From assembly GCA_015521185.1 (NCBI GenBank), contig WAOS01000097.1:1-32628 (forward strand): a DNA stretch of 32,628 bases. Reading direction: 5' to 3'. A program made the position numbers and the translations under genes. Within the stretch, counting starts at the first letter, position 1. Every line of letters begins with the position of its first letter. Below, in pieces: positions 10 to 5,297 of the stretch. The notes beneath the pieces were generated by a model. The model was not told the origin of the DNA. It was given only the letters and a program-made list of their open reading frames with translations, and did no database searches. The DNA comes from Desulfurococcales archaeon. Its GTDB lineage: Archaea > Thermoproteota > Thermoprotei_A > Sulfolobales > Acidilobaceae.

Positions 10-480
10 ATGCTGCCCAACGGCAAGAAGATGCTTGTCGACAGAGTCATATTCCCCGAGGCGGTGGCCGTCCTACCAGTCCTAGAGGACGGGACAGCTG
101 TCCTAGTGTGGCAGTACAGGCCCGTGATAGACAAGTTCATCCTAGAGGCGCCCGCCGGCGTCCTTAGGACGGGAGAGAGCCCGGAGGAGGCGGCGCTCAG
201 GGAGATGGAGGAGGAGACAGGCTATAGGGGAGGCGATCTTGTCCGGGTAGGCTCAGCATACACTAGCCCTGGCTACTCGACGGAGAAGCTGCACCTCTAT
301 GTTGCGCTTGGGCCCAAGCCGGGCGAGGCGAGGCCGGAGGAGCACGAGATCATCCGGGTAAAACGGTATGGGCTCCGGGAGCTCGCCGAAATGGCCCTGA
401 GAGGCGAGCTAGAGGATCTCAAGACTATAGCTCTGGTGCTGGCCGCGCGGAGGATCCTGGGTGGTGAGAGTGAAGCCTAG
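10..480 (+). CDS. NUDIX hydrolase, ADP-ribose pyrophosphatase-like
   Basis: Nudix box GVLRTGESPEEAALREMEEETGY in the ORF translation. Confidence 0.9.
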   Translation: MLPNGKKMLVDRVIFPEAVAVLPVLEDGTAVLVWQYRPVIDKFILEAPAGVLRTGESPEEAALREMEEETGYRGGDLVRVGSAYTSPGYSTEKLHLYVALGPKPGEARPEEHEIIRVKRYGLRELAEMALRGELEDLKTIALVLAARRILGGESEA

Positions 481-1309
481 GCTCGCCCTGGTATATAGCA
501 CTAGTGATCCCGCGGGGAGCGGGGCCGCTGGAGAGCTAGCCGAGATAGTCGGCTGGGAGAGGGCTGAGTGCCCCCTAGCAGTGGAGTGCAGGCTTCTCCG
601 GACCGGGGAGCTGCTAGCCGGCTACAACACCGAGCAGGTTAGGTTCGAGTTCCTCGACAAGACCCCCGACCCCATGGCGGACGCCGTAGTAGTGCTGTCA
701 AGGCATGCCAGCACTAGTGGGAGGCCCACACTTACAACCCACCATACGGGCAACCCGACGGCTGAGGCCTCCCTCGGCGGGGAGCCGGAGAAGCTCGCGT
801 GGAGCGCGCCCGCGCTGAGCAAGCTCCTGCTACGCCTATACGCGGAGGAGGCCCGGGAGAGGGGGCTCCTGGATAGGTACGAGGTGAGCCTGGAGGCGAC
901 TCACCACGGGCCCACCTCGAATAGGAAGCCGCTCGTCTTCATAGAGATAGGCAGCACGCCGAGGGAGTGGGCCGACCCGGATGCTAGGCGGGCCATGGCG
1001 AGCGCGGTGGCGAGAGCGCTAGGGGCAGAACTGCCCGAGTGCGTCCCAGCCGCAGGCTACGGAGGGACACACTATCCCGCGAGGTTCACACGCCTCCACC
1101 TGGAGAGCGAGTACTGTATGGGCCACATCATACCTAAGTATGCCTTCGCGAAGGGAGTGCCCGACCACGTTATAGCTCAGGCAGTGGAGAAGACGTGGCC
1201 GAGCACCGCGTCAGTGGGGCTCGTCGAGAAGAAGAGCCTGCGGTCCGCCGAGCGCAGGAGGGTCGAGAGTATCCTTGCAGGCATGGGTGTCCCGGTTGAG
1301 AAGATATGA
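461..1309 (+). CDS. dtdA: D-aminoacyl-tRNA deacylase, archaeal DtdA/GEK1 family
   Basis: HHTGNPTAEASLGG, THHGPTSNRKPLVFIEIGS and GGTHYPARFT motifs typical of the family. Confidence 0.9.
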   Translation: MVRVKPRLALVYSTSDPAGSGAAGELAEIVGWERAECPLAVECRLLRTGELLAGYNTEQVRFEFLDKTPDPMADAVVVLSRHASTSGRPTLTTHHTGNPTAEASLGGEPEKLAWSAPALSKLLLRLYAEEARERGLLDRYEVSLEATHHGPTSNRKPLVFIEIGSTPREWADPDARRAMASAVARALGAELPECVPAAGYGGTHYPARFTRLHLESEYCMGHIIPKYAFAKGVPDHVIAQAVEKTWPSTASVGLVEKKSLRSAERRRVESILAGMGVPVEKI

Positions 1310-2336
1310 GGTTGCCGGGGCTATCGCGCTATTCATCATAGCTAAGCTAGTGGTGCTCTGGGCCTCGGGAGCAACTAGTCTCGAGGGGCTGAGGATATTC
1401 GCCACCCGCTGGGACGCCGAGCACTTCGCTAGGCTGGCGGAGGAGTGGTATAGTGGGGAGGCCGACTACGCCTTCGCGCCCCTCCTCCCAGCGACAGCGA
1501 GGATACTAGTCGTCGCGGGTCTACCGTCATGGGCGAGCGTGCTGCTGGTTGCGAACATAGGGAGCGTAGCCCTCCTAGCAGGACTGTCCCGCCTTTACGA
1601 CCCGCGCACCGCGGCACTAGTCATGGCGTTTCCTGTCCTAGCGGTGTACACGACAGCCCCCTACAGCGAGGCCCTAGCTCTCCCCTTGTTCGTGTGGGGA
1701 CTCTACGCTTACCAGAGGAAGAACTACCTCGCAGCCGGCCTACTGTTGGGGGCCTCCGCTACTGCCAGGTACACGATGGCGCTGGCCGGTGCAGTGCTCG
1801 TACTCTACACTCTCCGGAGGGGCCTGCGGGAGGCGGCGGCCCTCACAGCAGGCCTAGCCCCTGCCGCCCTCCTGCTAGCAGCGTTCCTAGCGTCTAGCCG
1901 CTGGGGGCTAACGGTCTACTTCAGAGCGGAGAGGTACTGGCAGGCGGGGTTGGGGACTCCGCTCGACCATGTAAGATGGATTCTCGAGTCGAGCATAACG
2001 GCCCAGTTCGCGAGCCTCAGAGGAATACCCGTCTCCCCCGGGCTATACGTCGCGAGGAACATCCTCTTCGCTCTCCTAGCGGTGGCGGGCCTCGCGCTTC
2101 ACTGGAGTAGGTGGAGGAGGCCCTGGGAGACCCTGGCGGCGGTCCCCGGGATAATAGTTCCTATCCTAGCCACAGGCGTGCCAGCCCTCAGCATGCCCCG
2201 CCTCATCCTGGCTGGCCTGCCGGCAATAGCGGGCCTAGCCCCCAAGGGCAGGGCCACGGCCCTGATATATGTCGCTGGGGCCCTAGCGGGGGCGTGTGTC
2301 GTAGCCGTGTGGCATATGGAGCTCTTCTTCTCGTGA
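1275..2336 (+). CDS. Polytopic membrane protein, PIG-V-like mannosyltransferase family
   Basis: Multiple hydrophobic segments; N-terminal RWDAEHFARLAEEWYS...YAFAPLLP resembles the PIG-V/GT-C WD...FPLLP region. Start uncertain (TTG 1275, GTG 1287 or TTG 1296); overlaps the end of dtdA. Confidence 0.6.
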   Translation: MQAWVSRLRRYEVAGAIALFIIAKLVVLWASGATSLEGLRIFATRWDAEHFARLAEEWYSGEADYAFAPLLPATARILVVAGLPSWASVLLVANIGSVALLAGLSRLYDPRTAALVMAFPVLAVYTTAPYSEALALPLFVWGLYAYQRKNYLAAGLLLGASATARYTMALAGAVLVLYTLRRGLREAAALTAGLAPAALLLAAFLASSRWGLTVYFRAERYWQAGLGTPLDHVRWILESSITAQFASLRGIPVSPGLYVARNILFALLAVAGLALHWSRWRRPWETLAAVPGIIVPILATGVPALSMPRLILAGLPAIAGLAPKGRATALIYVAGALAGACVVAVWHMELFFS

Positions 2337-2359: not shown

Positions 2360-2466
2360 TGGTAGCCGGGCGGGGATTCGAACCCCGGTCACGGGGGCTC
2401 TCCTAGCCCTGCCCCCCGGGTAGCCCCCGGGAGAGGGCCTGGCTCCTGGCCGCTTCCAGAGCCCCG
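2360..2466 (-). tRNA. tRNA-Gln(CTG)-like 3' portion with probable anticodon-loop intron; no 5' half found (candidate split tRNA)
   Basis: Minus strand: CGGGG-CTCTGGA (anticodon stem 5' strand and Gln loop, 2466-2455), about 58 nt intervening, CCCCG-TGAC-CGGGG-TTCGAAT-CCCCG-CCCGGCT-A-CCA (2396-2360). T stem pairs perfectly. The 5' acceptor strand AGCCGGG and a D arm are not recognisable upstream. Confidence 0.6.
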
Positions 2467-2502
2467 CCACGGCCCTCACAATAGGAATCCTCCCCCGGGG
2501 AG

Positions 2503-2510
2503 CCTTATAG
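2503..2510 (-). promoter_or_regulatory. TATA-like box for the tRNA-like gene
   Basis: CTATAAGG on the minus strand, about 40 nt upstream of the CGGGGCTCTGG segment. Confidence 0.45.
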
Positions 2511-2515
2511 CCCTG

Positions 2516-2582: not shown

Positions 2583-5297
2583 TTGGCGGCTGCTGATCCT
2601 AAAGAGTACGATCTCAACTTCTTCCGGGAGATAGGCTTCGAGAGACGTAGGGGGAAGAGGTGTCCGGTATACTTCTGGAGCCTTGGCGGCAGGTTTGAGG
2701 AGCCGCCGGATGCCCCGTGTATCGAGTACAGGTTCGAGGAGGTGCGCAGCCGGCCTGCCATGACTGTGGGGGAGGCCCGAGAGCTGTTCCTCAGCTTCTT
2801 CGAGAGGAGGGGCCACAAGAGGATTAAGCCGAGGCCCGTCGTCGCTAGGTGGAGAGACGATTTATACCTCACCATAGCCAGCATCGTGGTCTTCCAGCCC
2901 CACGTCACCAGCGGTCTCGTGCCCCCTCCCGCCAACCCTCTAACGATTAGCCAGCCAAGCATAAGGCTTGAGGACATCGATAATGTGGGTCTAACCGTTG
3001 GGAGGCACCTCACTAGCTTCGAGATGGCGGCGCACCACGCATTCAACTACCCGGATAAGCAGGTCTACTGGAAGGAGGAGACGGTCCGCCTCGCCTACGA
3101 GTTCTTCACCAAGGAGATGGACATACCCCCGGAGGAGATAGTGTTCGTAGAGTCCTGGTGGGAGGGGGGAGGCAATGCGGGGCCAAGCTTCGAGGTCGTC
3201 GTGGGCGGCCTGGAGCTAGCTACACTAGTCTTCATGAAGTACAGGGTCACCGACTCCGGCTACGAGGAGATACCGCTCAAGATAGTTGACACCGGCTACG
3301 GTGTGGAGAGGCTGGCATGGTTCACCAACAAGACCCCCACGGCATTCCACACCATCTTCGGCCCACTCCTCGGAAAGTACCGCGAGATCATAGGCGTTCC
3401 AGAGCCGCCGAGCGAGATACTATGGGCCGCGTACAAGGCTGCCGGCAGGCTGGACCCGGAGGACCCTGCAAGCGTCCAAGAGTATTATCGTAGCATAGCT
3501 CAGCGGACCGGTCTCCCCCTGGAGGACGTCGCGAGCACGATGCAGAGGGAGGCCAGACTGTATAGCGTGCTAGACCACGCCAAGACGCTCGCCCTAATGC
3601 TTGGCGACGGCATAGTGCCCTCGAACAGCGGGGAGGGGTACCTGGCGAGGCTTGTGGCTAGAAGAGCGCTCAAGCAGCTTAGCCTCTTGGGGGCTGACAG
3701 TGTTAGCCTGGCAGAGCTCGTCGATCTCCAGATAGAGTACTGGGGCAGGGACTTCCCCCAGCTCGTGGAGAACAGGGACTACATTCTGGACGCGGCAAGC
3801 CTCGAGCAGGAGAGGTTTAAGGAAGTTATTGAGAGGGGGAGGAAGATTGTTAGGAAGCTCCTGCGCAAGAAGAAGGCCCTCTCACTAGAAGACCTCATAA
3901 GGCTCTACGACAGCCACGGCATACCTCCCGAGATCATAGCCGAGGAGGCTGCTAGGCTCGGCGTCAAGGTCGAGGTACCGCACAACTTCTACAGCATAGT
4001 CGCTAGCAGGCACCAGGCACCTGAGAGGATAGCTAGGAAGAGGGAGAAGACTAACCTGCCCGCGGAGATCGCGGAGTGGGCCCGCACTCTCCCCCCGACC
4101 AGGCCCCTATACTACGAGAACCAGTATACCCGCGAGTTCGCCGCTAATGTGCTCGGATGCAGGGGGGAGCACGTTGTTCTCGACAAGACAGCGTTCTACC
4201 CTACTGGCGGTGGCCAGCTGCACGACACTGGGGTGATCTGCTTCTCCTCGGGCTGTGTGAGGGTTGTACGCGTTGAGAAGGCTAGTGACACCATAGTCCA
4301 CGTTCTAGAGCGGCCCGTGTCGTGCGTCCCCGGGGAAGAGGTGAGGGGCAGTATAGACTGGGAGAGACGGTATAGGCTGATGAGGCACCACACTGTGACC
4401 CACGTCCTCCTAGGCGCCCTACGGCGAGTGCTAGGCAACCACGTGTGGCAGGCGGGCGCGGAGAAGACCCCCCAGAAGGCGAGGTTCGACTTCACTCATC
4501 ATAGGCCCCTCACGAAAGAGCAGATACTGGAGATTGAGAGGCTCGTGAACAAGGTTATCGACGAGAAGCGTCCAGTCATAGCTAGGTTCGTGCCCAAGAA
4601 CGAGGCGGAGGAGAGATACGGGTTCACCATATACCAGGGCGGCGTCCCGATGAAGCCGGTGATAAGGCTCGTAGAGGTGAAGGACTGGGACGTTGAGGGG
4701 TGCGGCGGGACGCACCTGTCGAACACGGGAGAGATAGGCGGGTTCAAGATTATCGGCGTCGACAGGATACAGGACGGAGTGATAAGGGTCGAGTACGTCG
4801 CTGGAACGCGGGTGAGCGAGGAGGCCAGGAGGCTCGAGGAAACCCTGGAGAGGGTGGCCGGCATCCTAGGCACTGAGCCCAGCCAGGTCGAGCACGGGGC
4901 TAGGAGAACAGTCGAGACTCTGAAGAGGTACGAGGAGACGCTCAAGACCTATAGGAGGCTCTGGCTGGAGAGCGTCAGGGAGAGGATAGCTAGGGACAGG
5001 TCAAGGCTTATCATACTTGAGGCTGTCGAGCCCGATAGGAAGGAGATACAGGCCGCTCTGAAGAAGCTCACAGGCATGTTCCCGGACAAGGTAATAGGCC
5101 TCTACTATAGGGGGGACAGCCACGTTCAGCTAGAGCTAGCCACCAACGCTAAGAACATTCATCTCGGGCAGGCGGTCCGCAAGGCAGCTGAGAGTGTCGG
5201 GGCTAGAGGAGGGGGCGGTCCGAGTGTCGCGAGTGTGAGGCTCCCAGCCGACAAGCTCCAGGAGTTCGCGGAGGAACTAGCCAAGATACTAGGGTGA
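2583..5297 (+). CDS. alaS: Alanyl-tRNA synthetase, archaeal type
   Basis: 904 aa; HHTVTHVLLGALRRVLG and CGGTHLSNTGEIGGFKI editing-domain zinc motifs; archaeal N-terminal extension. Confidence 0.97.
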   Translation: MAAADPKEYDLNFFREIGFERRRGKRCPVYFWSLGGRFEEPPDAPCIEYRFEEVRSRPAMTVGEARELFLSFFERRGHKRIKPRPVVARWRDDLYLTIASIVVFQPHVTSGLVPPPANPLTISQPSIRLEDIDNVGLTVGRHLTSFEMAAHHAFNYPDKQVYWKEETVRLAYEFFTKEMDIPPEEIVFVESWWEGGGNAGPSFEVVVGGLELATLVFMKYRVTDSGYEEIPLKIVDTGYGVERLAWFTNKTPTAFHTIFGPLLGKYREIIGVPEPPSEILWAAYKAAGRLDPEDPASVQEYYRSIAQRTGLPLEDVASTMQREARLYSVLDHAKTLALMLGDGIVPSNSGEGYLARLVARRALKQLSLLGADSVSLAELVDLQIEYWGRDFPQLVENRDYILDAASLEQERFKEVIERGRKIVRKLLRKKKALSLEDLIRLYDSHGIPPEIIAEEAARLGVKVEVPHNFYSIVASRHQAPERIARKREKTNLPAEIAEWARTLPPTRPLYYENQYTREFAANVLGCRGEHVVLDKTAFYPTGGGQLHDTGVICFSSGCVRVVRVEKASDTIVHVLERPVSCVPGEEVRGSIDWERRYRLMRHHTVTHVLLGALRRVLGNHVWQAGAEKTPQKARFDFTHHRPLTKEQILEIERLVNKVIDEKRPVIARFVPKNEAEERYGFTIYQGGVPMKPVIRLVEVKDWDVEGCGGTHLSNTGEIGGFKIIGVDRIQDGVIRVEYVAGTRVSEEARRLEETLERVAGILGTEPSQVEHGARRTVETLKRYEETLKTYRRLWLESVRERIARDRSRLIILEAVEPDRKEIQAALKKLTGMFPDKVIGLYYRGDSHVQLELATNAKNIHLGQAVRKAAESVGARGGGGPSVASVRLPADKLQEFAEELAKILG

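What the first reader, a model, noticed from the sequence alone, without database searches (positions are those of the whole stretch)
2360..2510. Candidate split (trans-spliced) tRNA-Gln(CTG) 3' half with an extra anticodon-loop intron
The minus strand encodes a complete T arm, 3' acceptor CCCGGCT-A-CCA, and an anticodon stem CGGGG/CCCCG flanking a Gln-type loop CTCTGGA interrupted by about 58 nt. The complementary 5' acceptor AGCCGGG and a D arm are absent upstream. Only about 40 nt separate the anticodon stem from a TATA-like CTATAAGG, leaving a GC-rich leader of about 15 nt (roughly TTGTGAGGGCCGTGG), too short for a 5' half. This is the layout expected for a 3' half joined near position 25/26, plus a cis intron near 37/38. 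Split tRNAs joined at these positions are known in Caldivirga, and split or permuted tRNAs are known in other Crenarchaeota. That this particular locus is split is my inference.
Basis: partly seen in the sequence, partly recalled or inferred. Interest (0 to 1): 0.78.

Follow-up and report, generated by a model that had tools for sequence, protein, structure and literature searches.

The report
Split tRNA-Gln(UUG) gene, 3' half
The window holds the back half of a glutamine tRNA gene in a heat-loving archaeon; the front half, with the anticodon, lies on another contig of the same genome, and the two RNAs carry a 49-base matching stretch that should pair them for splicing, so the split is very probably real but is made at a different place than first proposed.

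Summary
The split is supported; the proposed junction is not. Window 2480-2360 (-) is the 3' half of a split tRNA-Gln whose 5' half lies in the same genome at G000:C59:747-657 (-). The 5' half carries acceptor, D arm, anticodon UUG and a trailer complementary to window 2452-2404 (duplex -106 kcal/mol, shuffles -52±5). Together they form a canonical bulge-helix-bulge at 37/38. The joined tRNA is identical to the intact tRNA-Gln(UUG) gene of a congener. It lies just upstream of the paired leader, lacks a proper intron helix and has no 1-25 partner; it is probably a remnant of an older 5' exon. In congener G035 the intact gene sits between the genes beside the C59 half and those beside the window half, so the gene appears to have been broken in place by a rearrangement. 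tRNA-Gln is split at 37/38 in 8 of 48 genomes of the family and in 13 related MAGs; in eight of those, two 5' halves (UUG, CUG) face a single 3' half. Split tRNAs are a known kind; I found no report of split tRNA-Gln in this phylum. No RNA evidence was available.

The parts
2360..2397 (-). 3' exon of tRNA-Gln, positions 38-76 including encoded CCA (CCCCCGTGACCGGGGTTCGAATCCCCGCCCGGCTACCA)
   Evidence: Identical to the 3' exon of intact tRNA-Gln genes in congeners; only copy in the genome
2398..2403 (-). 3' strand of the bulge-helix-bulge: GGAG pairs with CUUU of the 5' half; AG plus C38 form the 3-nt bulge
   Evidence: Canonical BHB in trans with G000:C59
2404..2452 (-). Leader complementary to the trailer of the 5' half at G000:C59:708-657
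   Evidence: duplex -106 kcal/mol, z -10.6 against shuffles; longest such pairing among the pairs compared
2456..2467 (-).
   Evidence: GCGGGGCTYTGG occurs only twice in the genome, here and in the C59 5' half; 21-column match to the G016 5' half, reached by 1 of 2000 shuffles
2502..2512 (-). TATA-like box of the 3' half (GGCTATAAGGC); start of transcription expected near 2480
   Evidence: Sequence; start position inferred from usual archaeal spacing
10..480 (+). NUDIX hydrolase gene, kept next to the 3' half
   Evidence: Pfam PF00293; synteny
461..1309 (+). D-aminoacyl-tRNA deacylase (DtdA) gene, kept next to the 3' half
   Evidence: Pfam PF04414; synteny
1275..2336 (+). Membrane protein, PIG-V-like, kept next to the 3' half
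   Evidence: Pfam PF04188 weak; synteny in G035
2583..5297 (+). alaS (alanyl-tRNA synthetase), present neighbour on the promoter side of the 3' half; not at the tRNA-Gln(UUG) locus of G035 in the 9-kb stretch examined
   Evidence: Pfam PF01411; absent from the matches in L199

Best explanation
Window 2480-2360 (-) is a separate gene for the 3' half of tRNA-Gln(UUG). Its own promoter makes an RNA of about 120 nt. The leader of that RNA pairs with the trailer of the 5'-half RNA from G000:C59, giving a bulge-helix-bulge at 37/38. The archaeal tRNA-splicing endonuclease cuts GG|A and AG|C, and a ligase joins 37 to 38. The result is a normal tRNA-Gln(UUG). The split arose when a rearrangement broke a formerly intact gene at the anticodon/intron position, leaving each half with its old neighbours. 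Shown by sequence: the halves, the pairing, the identity of the product, the synteny. Inferred: transcription, trans-splicing, order of events.
For: Exactly one 5' and one 3' exon in G000, on different contigs. Trailer/leader pairing with a perfect BHB: UAGCCC/GGGCUA, GGA bulge, CUUU/GGAG, AGC bulge, CGGGG/CCCCG. The joined 76-mer is identical to intact UUG genes of G038 and G017, and ARAGORN calls it Gln(ttg). In G035 and G036 the intact gene sits between C59-type genes and DtdA (and MEM and NUDIX in G035). 31 half pairs from 21 genomes all keep the 4-bp central helix and 3-nt bulges, with stems that differ in sequence but stay paired. EndA-family genes are found in congeners.
Against: No RNA data. 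The genome is 77% complete and in 97 contigs, so the distance between the halves is unknown and a chimeric contig cannot be fully excluded. No EndA gene was found in this bin, probably because it is incomplete. The 3' half keeps an unexplained CUG-type 12-mer in its leader.
Confidence: 0.92

Rival explanations
1. One reading: a 3' half starting at position 26 with its own CUG anticodon arm and a cis intron at 37/38, joined at 25/26 to an unseen 1-25 fragment to make tRNA-Gln(CUG).
For: The 12-mer GCGGGGCTCTGG equals positions 26-37 of tRNA-Gln(CUG); no CUG gene was found in this bin; 25/26 joins are known in Caldivirga (background knowledge).
Against: No 1-25 fragment (20-mer, up to 2 mismatches: the two other hits have no tRNA continuation). 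The trailer it would need is absent. Forcing the cis anticodon stem costs about 10 kcal/mol (-65.5 vs -75.2), and the cis intron lacks the inner helix by inspection, whereas the trans BHB is perfect.
Confidence: 0.03
2. One intact gene with a hairpin intron of 100 nt or more, broken only by the assembler.
For: Trailer and leader could be the two arms of a hairpin; GC-rich hairpins break assemblies.
Against: Both contigs continue past the hairpin arms into other genes. The C59 side continues to a gene that in G035 lies beyond NUDIX, as expected if the 3' half-MEM-DtdA-NUDIX segment moved. A TATA box precedes the 3' half. Eight family genomes including this one show the same organisation, several with 146-1943 nt gaps on one contig.
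Confidence: 0.03
3. Both pieces are pseudogenes of a disrupted tRNA-Gln and a functional UUG gene lies in the missing 23%.
For: Incomplete genome; remnant sequence upstream.
Against: Both exons are without mutation, the pairing is extensive and the BHB is intact; pseudogenes would not be expected to keep 49 nt of trans pairing.
Confidence: 0.02

Closest known systems
[quoted passage not shown]
   Same: Two transcripts, GC-rich complementary leader/trailer, hBHBh' at 37/38, own promoter for the 3' half, synteny break within the tRNA
   Different: Different isotype; those halves are adjacent, here they are on different contigs; 14-bp GC-rich stem in A. pernix against about 49 complementary bases here
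Split tRNA-Gln(UUG) of Nanoarchaeum equitans (listed in PMC3218864 Table 1)
   Same: Same isotype and anticodon, two separate loci, trans-spliced
   Different: Joined at 32/33, not 37/38; distant phylum; therefore very probably an independent split
N. equitans tRNA-Glu: two 5' halves sharing one 3' half (PMC4033280, PMC3218864)
   Same: Like genomes G048-G055 here, with UUG and CUG 5' halves and one 3' half
   Different: Different isotype; sharing is not shown in the window's own genome
Tri-split tRNAs of Caldivirga maquilingensis (Fujishima et al. 2009; read only as cited in PMC4033280)
   Same: The window's leader carries a 26-37 piece; joins at 25/26 and 37/38 in Caldivirga are recalled from memory
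   Different: No 1-25 fragment found; the piece is best read as a remnant

Membership tests
Split (trans-spliced) tRNA, archaeal | 5' and 3' halves encoded at separate loci of one genome | tested here: met
   5' exon only at G000:C59:747-710, 3' exon only at G000:C97:2397-2360
Split (trans-spliced) tRNA, archaeal | Complementary trailer and leader | tested here: met
   51 against 49 nt, duplex -106 kcal/mol, z -10.6
Split (trans-spliced) tRNA, archaeal | Bulge-helix-bulge at the junction | tested here: met
   4-bp central helix, two 3-nt bulges, 6-bp inner helix
Split (trans-spliced) tRNA, archaeal | Joined product is a normal tRNA | tested here: met
   ARAGORN Gln(ttg); 0 of 76 differences to intact genes of G038 and G017
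Split (trans-spliced) tRNA, archaeal | Separate promoters for the halves | tested here: inconclusive
   TATA-like GGCTATAAGGC before the 3' half; only an AT-rich stretch about 40 nt before the 5' half
Split (trans-spliced) tRNA, archaeal | Half transcripts and mature joined tRNA observed | not testable with these tools
   No RNA data
Split (trans-spliced) tRNA, archaeal | Splicing endonuclease in the organism | tested here: inconclusive
   PF01974 not found in this 77% bin, present in all four congeners searched
Tri-split tRNA | Three separate fragments with junctions at 25/26 and 37/38 | tested here: not met
   5' half is continuous 1-37; no 1-25 fragment
Permuted tRNA | 3' part immediately upstream of the 5' part in one transcript | tested here: not met
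   No 5' part downstream in the window; it is on C59

The most novel reading that the evidence does not exclude
The 3'-half RNA works in two ways: in trans with the C59 5' half it gives tRNA-Gln(UUG), and through its own CUG anticodon arm plus an undiscovered 1-25 fragment it gives tRNA-Gln(CUG), so one transcript would serve two isoacceptors through two different junctions.
Probability: 0.03. Interest if true: 0.85.

Novelty: new member of a known kind. Interest (0 to 1): 0.55.

Why it matters
Split tRNAs are known from few genomes (seven by a 2014 review). Here the same tRNA occurs in intact, cis-intron, adjacent-split and distant-split forms within one archaeal family, and the synteny catches the break inside the gene. 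That makes the 'late split' origin directly testable and suggests that tRNA-Gln is split repeatedly in this order, in some genomes with one 3' half apparently shared by both isoacceptors. It also means gene finders can miss these tRNAs.

Tried and rejected
Pattern AGCCGGGGT for the 5' acceptor: wrong guess, 14 chance hits, the control pattern as frequent. ARAGORN and Rfam on the window: nothing. Two weak 5'-half lookalikes at C18 and C44: no tRNA continuation. Idea that trailer and leader are a direct duplication of one intron: direct alignment is at shuffle level (15 vs 14.9), only the reverse complement matches (52). First run of the half-pairing script had a wrong regular expression, repeated. 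Two literature searches gave no later report of split tRNA-Gln in Crenarchaeota and a third gave no papers; the library holds only open-licence papers.

Full report
Observation. On the minus strand the window has a complete T arm, acceptor 3' strand and CCA at 2397-2360, with no D arm or 5' acceptor nearby. ARAGORN and Rfam find no tRNA in the window at their thresholds. The genome (G000) is a 1.05-Mb, 77% complete bin in 97 contigs, and the window is contig C97. Matched contigs of same-family and same-genus genomes (G016, G037) carry the title 'Acidilobaceae archaeon', so the family is taken to be Acidilobaceae; the sizes of G006 and G001 fit Aeropyrum pernix and Acidilobus saccharovorans (inference from memory).

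The missing half. A search with the tRNA-Gln 5' end of relatives found one 5' half in G000, at C59:747-710 on the minus strand: AGCCGGGTCGTCTAGCGGCCCAGGATGCGGGGCTTTGG. It carries the anticodon TTG and is followed not by the 3' exon but by a trailer. Before I knew this, the DNA search with the window had already matched the same place in the opposite orientation (C59:658-708, E 8e-5). The trailer is close to the reverse complement of the window's 2452-2404. The local alignment score is 52 against a shuffle maximum of 28, and the duplex energy is -106 kcal/mol against -52±5 in shuffles.

The junction. Co-folding puts the halves together with a textbook bulge-helix-bulge: UAGCCC/GGGCUA, bulge GGA, CUUU/GGAG, bulge AGC, CGGGG/CCCCG. 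Cutting GG|A and AG|C and joining gives a 76-nt tRNA-Gln(UUG) that is letter for letter the intact gene of congener G038 and of G017. So the join is at 37/38, the usual intron site, and not at 25/26.

GCGGGGCTCTGG at 2467-2456 lies just upstream of the paired leader. GCGGGGCTYTGG occurs only twice in the genome, here and in the C59 5' half. With the next bases it matches the 5' exon end and intron start of relatives over 21 columns (1 of 2000 shuffles as good). I read it as a remnant of a former 5' exon at this locus. It could also take part in a cis fold, but that fold is about 10 kcal/mol worse than the free fold, the inner intron helix does not form by inspection, and no 1-25 partner was found in the bin. 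How a CUG-type remnant came to stand beside a 3' half used for UUG is not explained; in congeners G037 and G038 the CUG copy sits at this locus, which may be related.

How the split arose. In congener G035 the intact UUG gene stands between the genes that flank the 5' half on C59 and the membrane protein, DtdA and NUDIX genes that flank the 3' half in the window; G036 shows the C59-type genes on one side and DtdA on the other as far as its contig reaches. In G035 the gene found just past the 5' half on C59 lies beyond NUDIX. So in G000 the segment 3' half-MEM-DtdA-NUDIX appears to have left its old place, with the break inside the tRNA, and now stands next to alaS. This is the pattern that Chan et al. 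described for split tRNA-Asp (PMC3218864). Sugahara et al. (PMC3293823) proposed mobile elements as the cause in another archaeon; I did not search for one here.

Relatives. In 48 genomes of the family the counts of 5' and 3' exons are equal, with no orphan halves. Eight genomes have a split tRNA-Gln: gaps between the halves of 146-222 nt (G028, G040, G042, G043), 712 (G016), 1943 (G027) and different contigs (G000, G041). Others have ordinary cis introns or none. A scan of named genomes found 13 further MAGs with split tRNA-Gln. In eight of these (G048-G055) there are two 5' halves, UUG and CUG, and one 3' half, whose leader pairs with both trailers. All 31 half pairs keep the 4-bp central helix and 3-nt bulges, while the stems beyond differ between genomes and still pair. 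The window's pair has the longest complementarity of those compared. The short-gap cases (146-222 nt) could still be long cis introns; a TATA-like box can be seen inside the gap in several.

Known or new. Split tRNAs are known; the held literature lists Asp and Lys in Desulfurococcales, tRNA-Gln(UUG) in Nanoarchaeum at 32/33, and sharing of a 3' half for tRNA-Glu in Nanoarchaeum. I found no report of split tRNA-Gln in Crenarchaeota/Thermoproteota, but subscription papers are not covered. I file this as a new member of a known kind.

Limits. There is no RNA evidence. The bin lacks about 23% of the genome; no EndA hit was found in it, though EndA is present in the four congeners, and no CUG gene was found. 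Whether a CUG 5' half shares this 3' half is open.

Noticed in passing
window 25402-25294 (-): A second tRNA missed by ARAGORN and below the Rfam cut-off: tRNA-Pro(CGG) with a 31-nt non-canonical intron near position 31/32; the spliced form is called Pro(cgg) by ARAGORN.
   Followed up: partly
G048-G055 (e.g. L128, L134 and L194; L120, L133 and L184): Eight Sulfolobales/Desulfurococcales MAGs carry two tRNA-Gln 5' halves (UUG and CUG) and only one 3' half, whose leader pairs with both trailers: an apparent shared 3' half.
   Followed up: partly
L202 and L213 (G037), L201 and L214 (G038): In two congeners the CUG gene, not the UUG gene, occupies the locus between the C59-type genes and DtdA: the two tRNA-Gln genes seem to have swapped places or been converted.
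   Followed up: no
L046 (G000:C30:1-135): tRNA-like 3' end with a TATA-like stretch just upstream, on an AT-rich contig; either another 3' half or contamination of the bin.
   Followed up: no
G040 (L103, L058, L121) and G042: Both tRNA-Gln isoacceptors are split in the same genome, each with its own pair of adjacent halves.
   Followed up: partly
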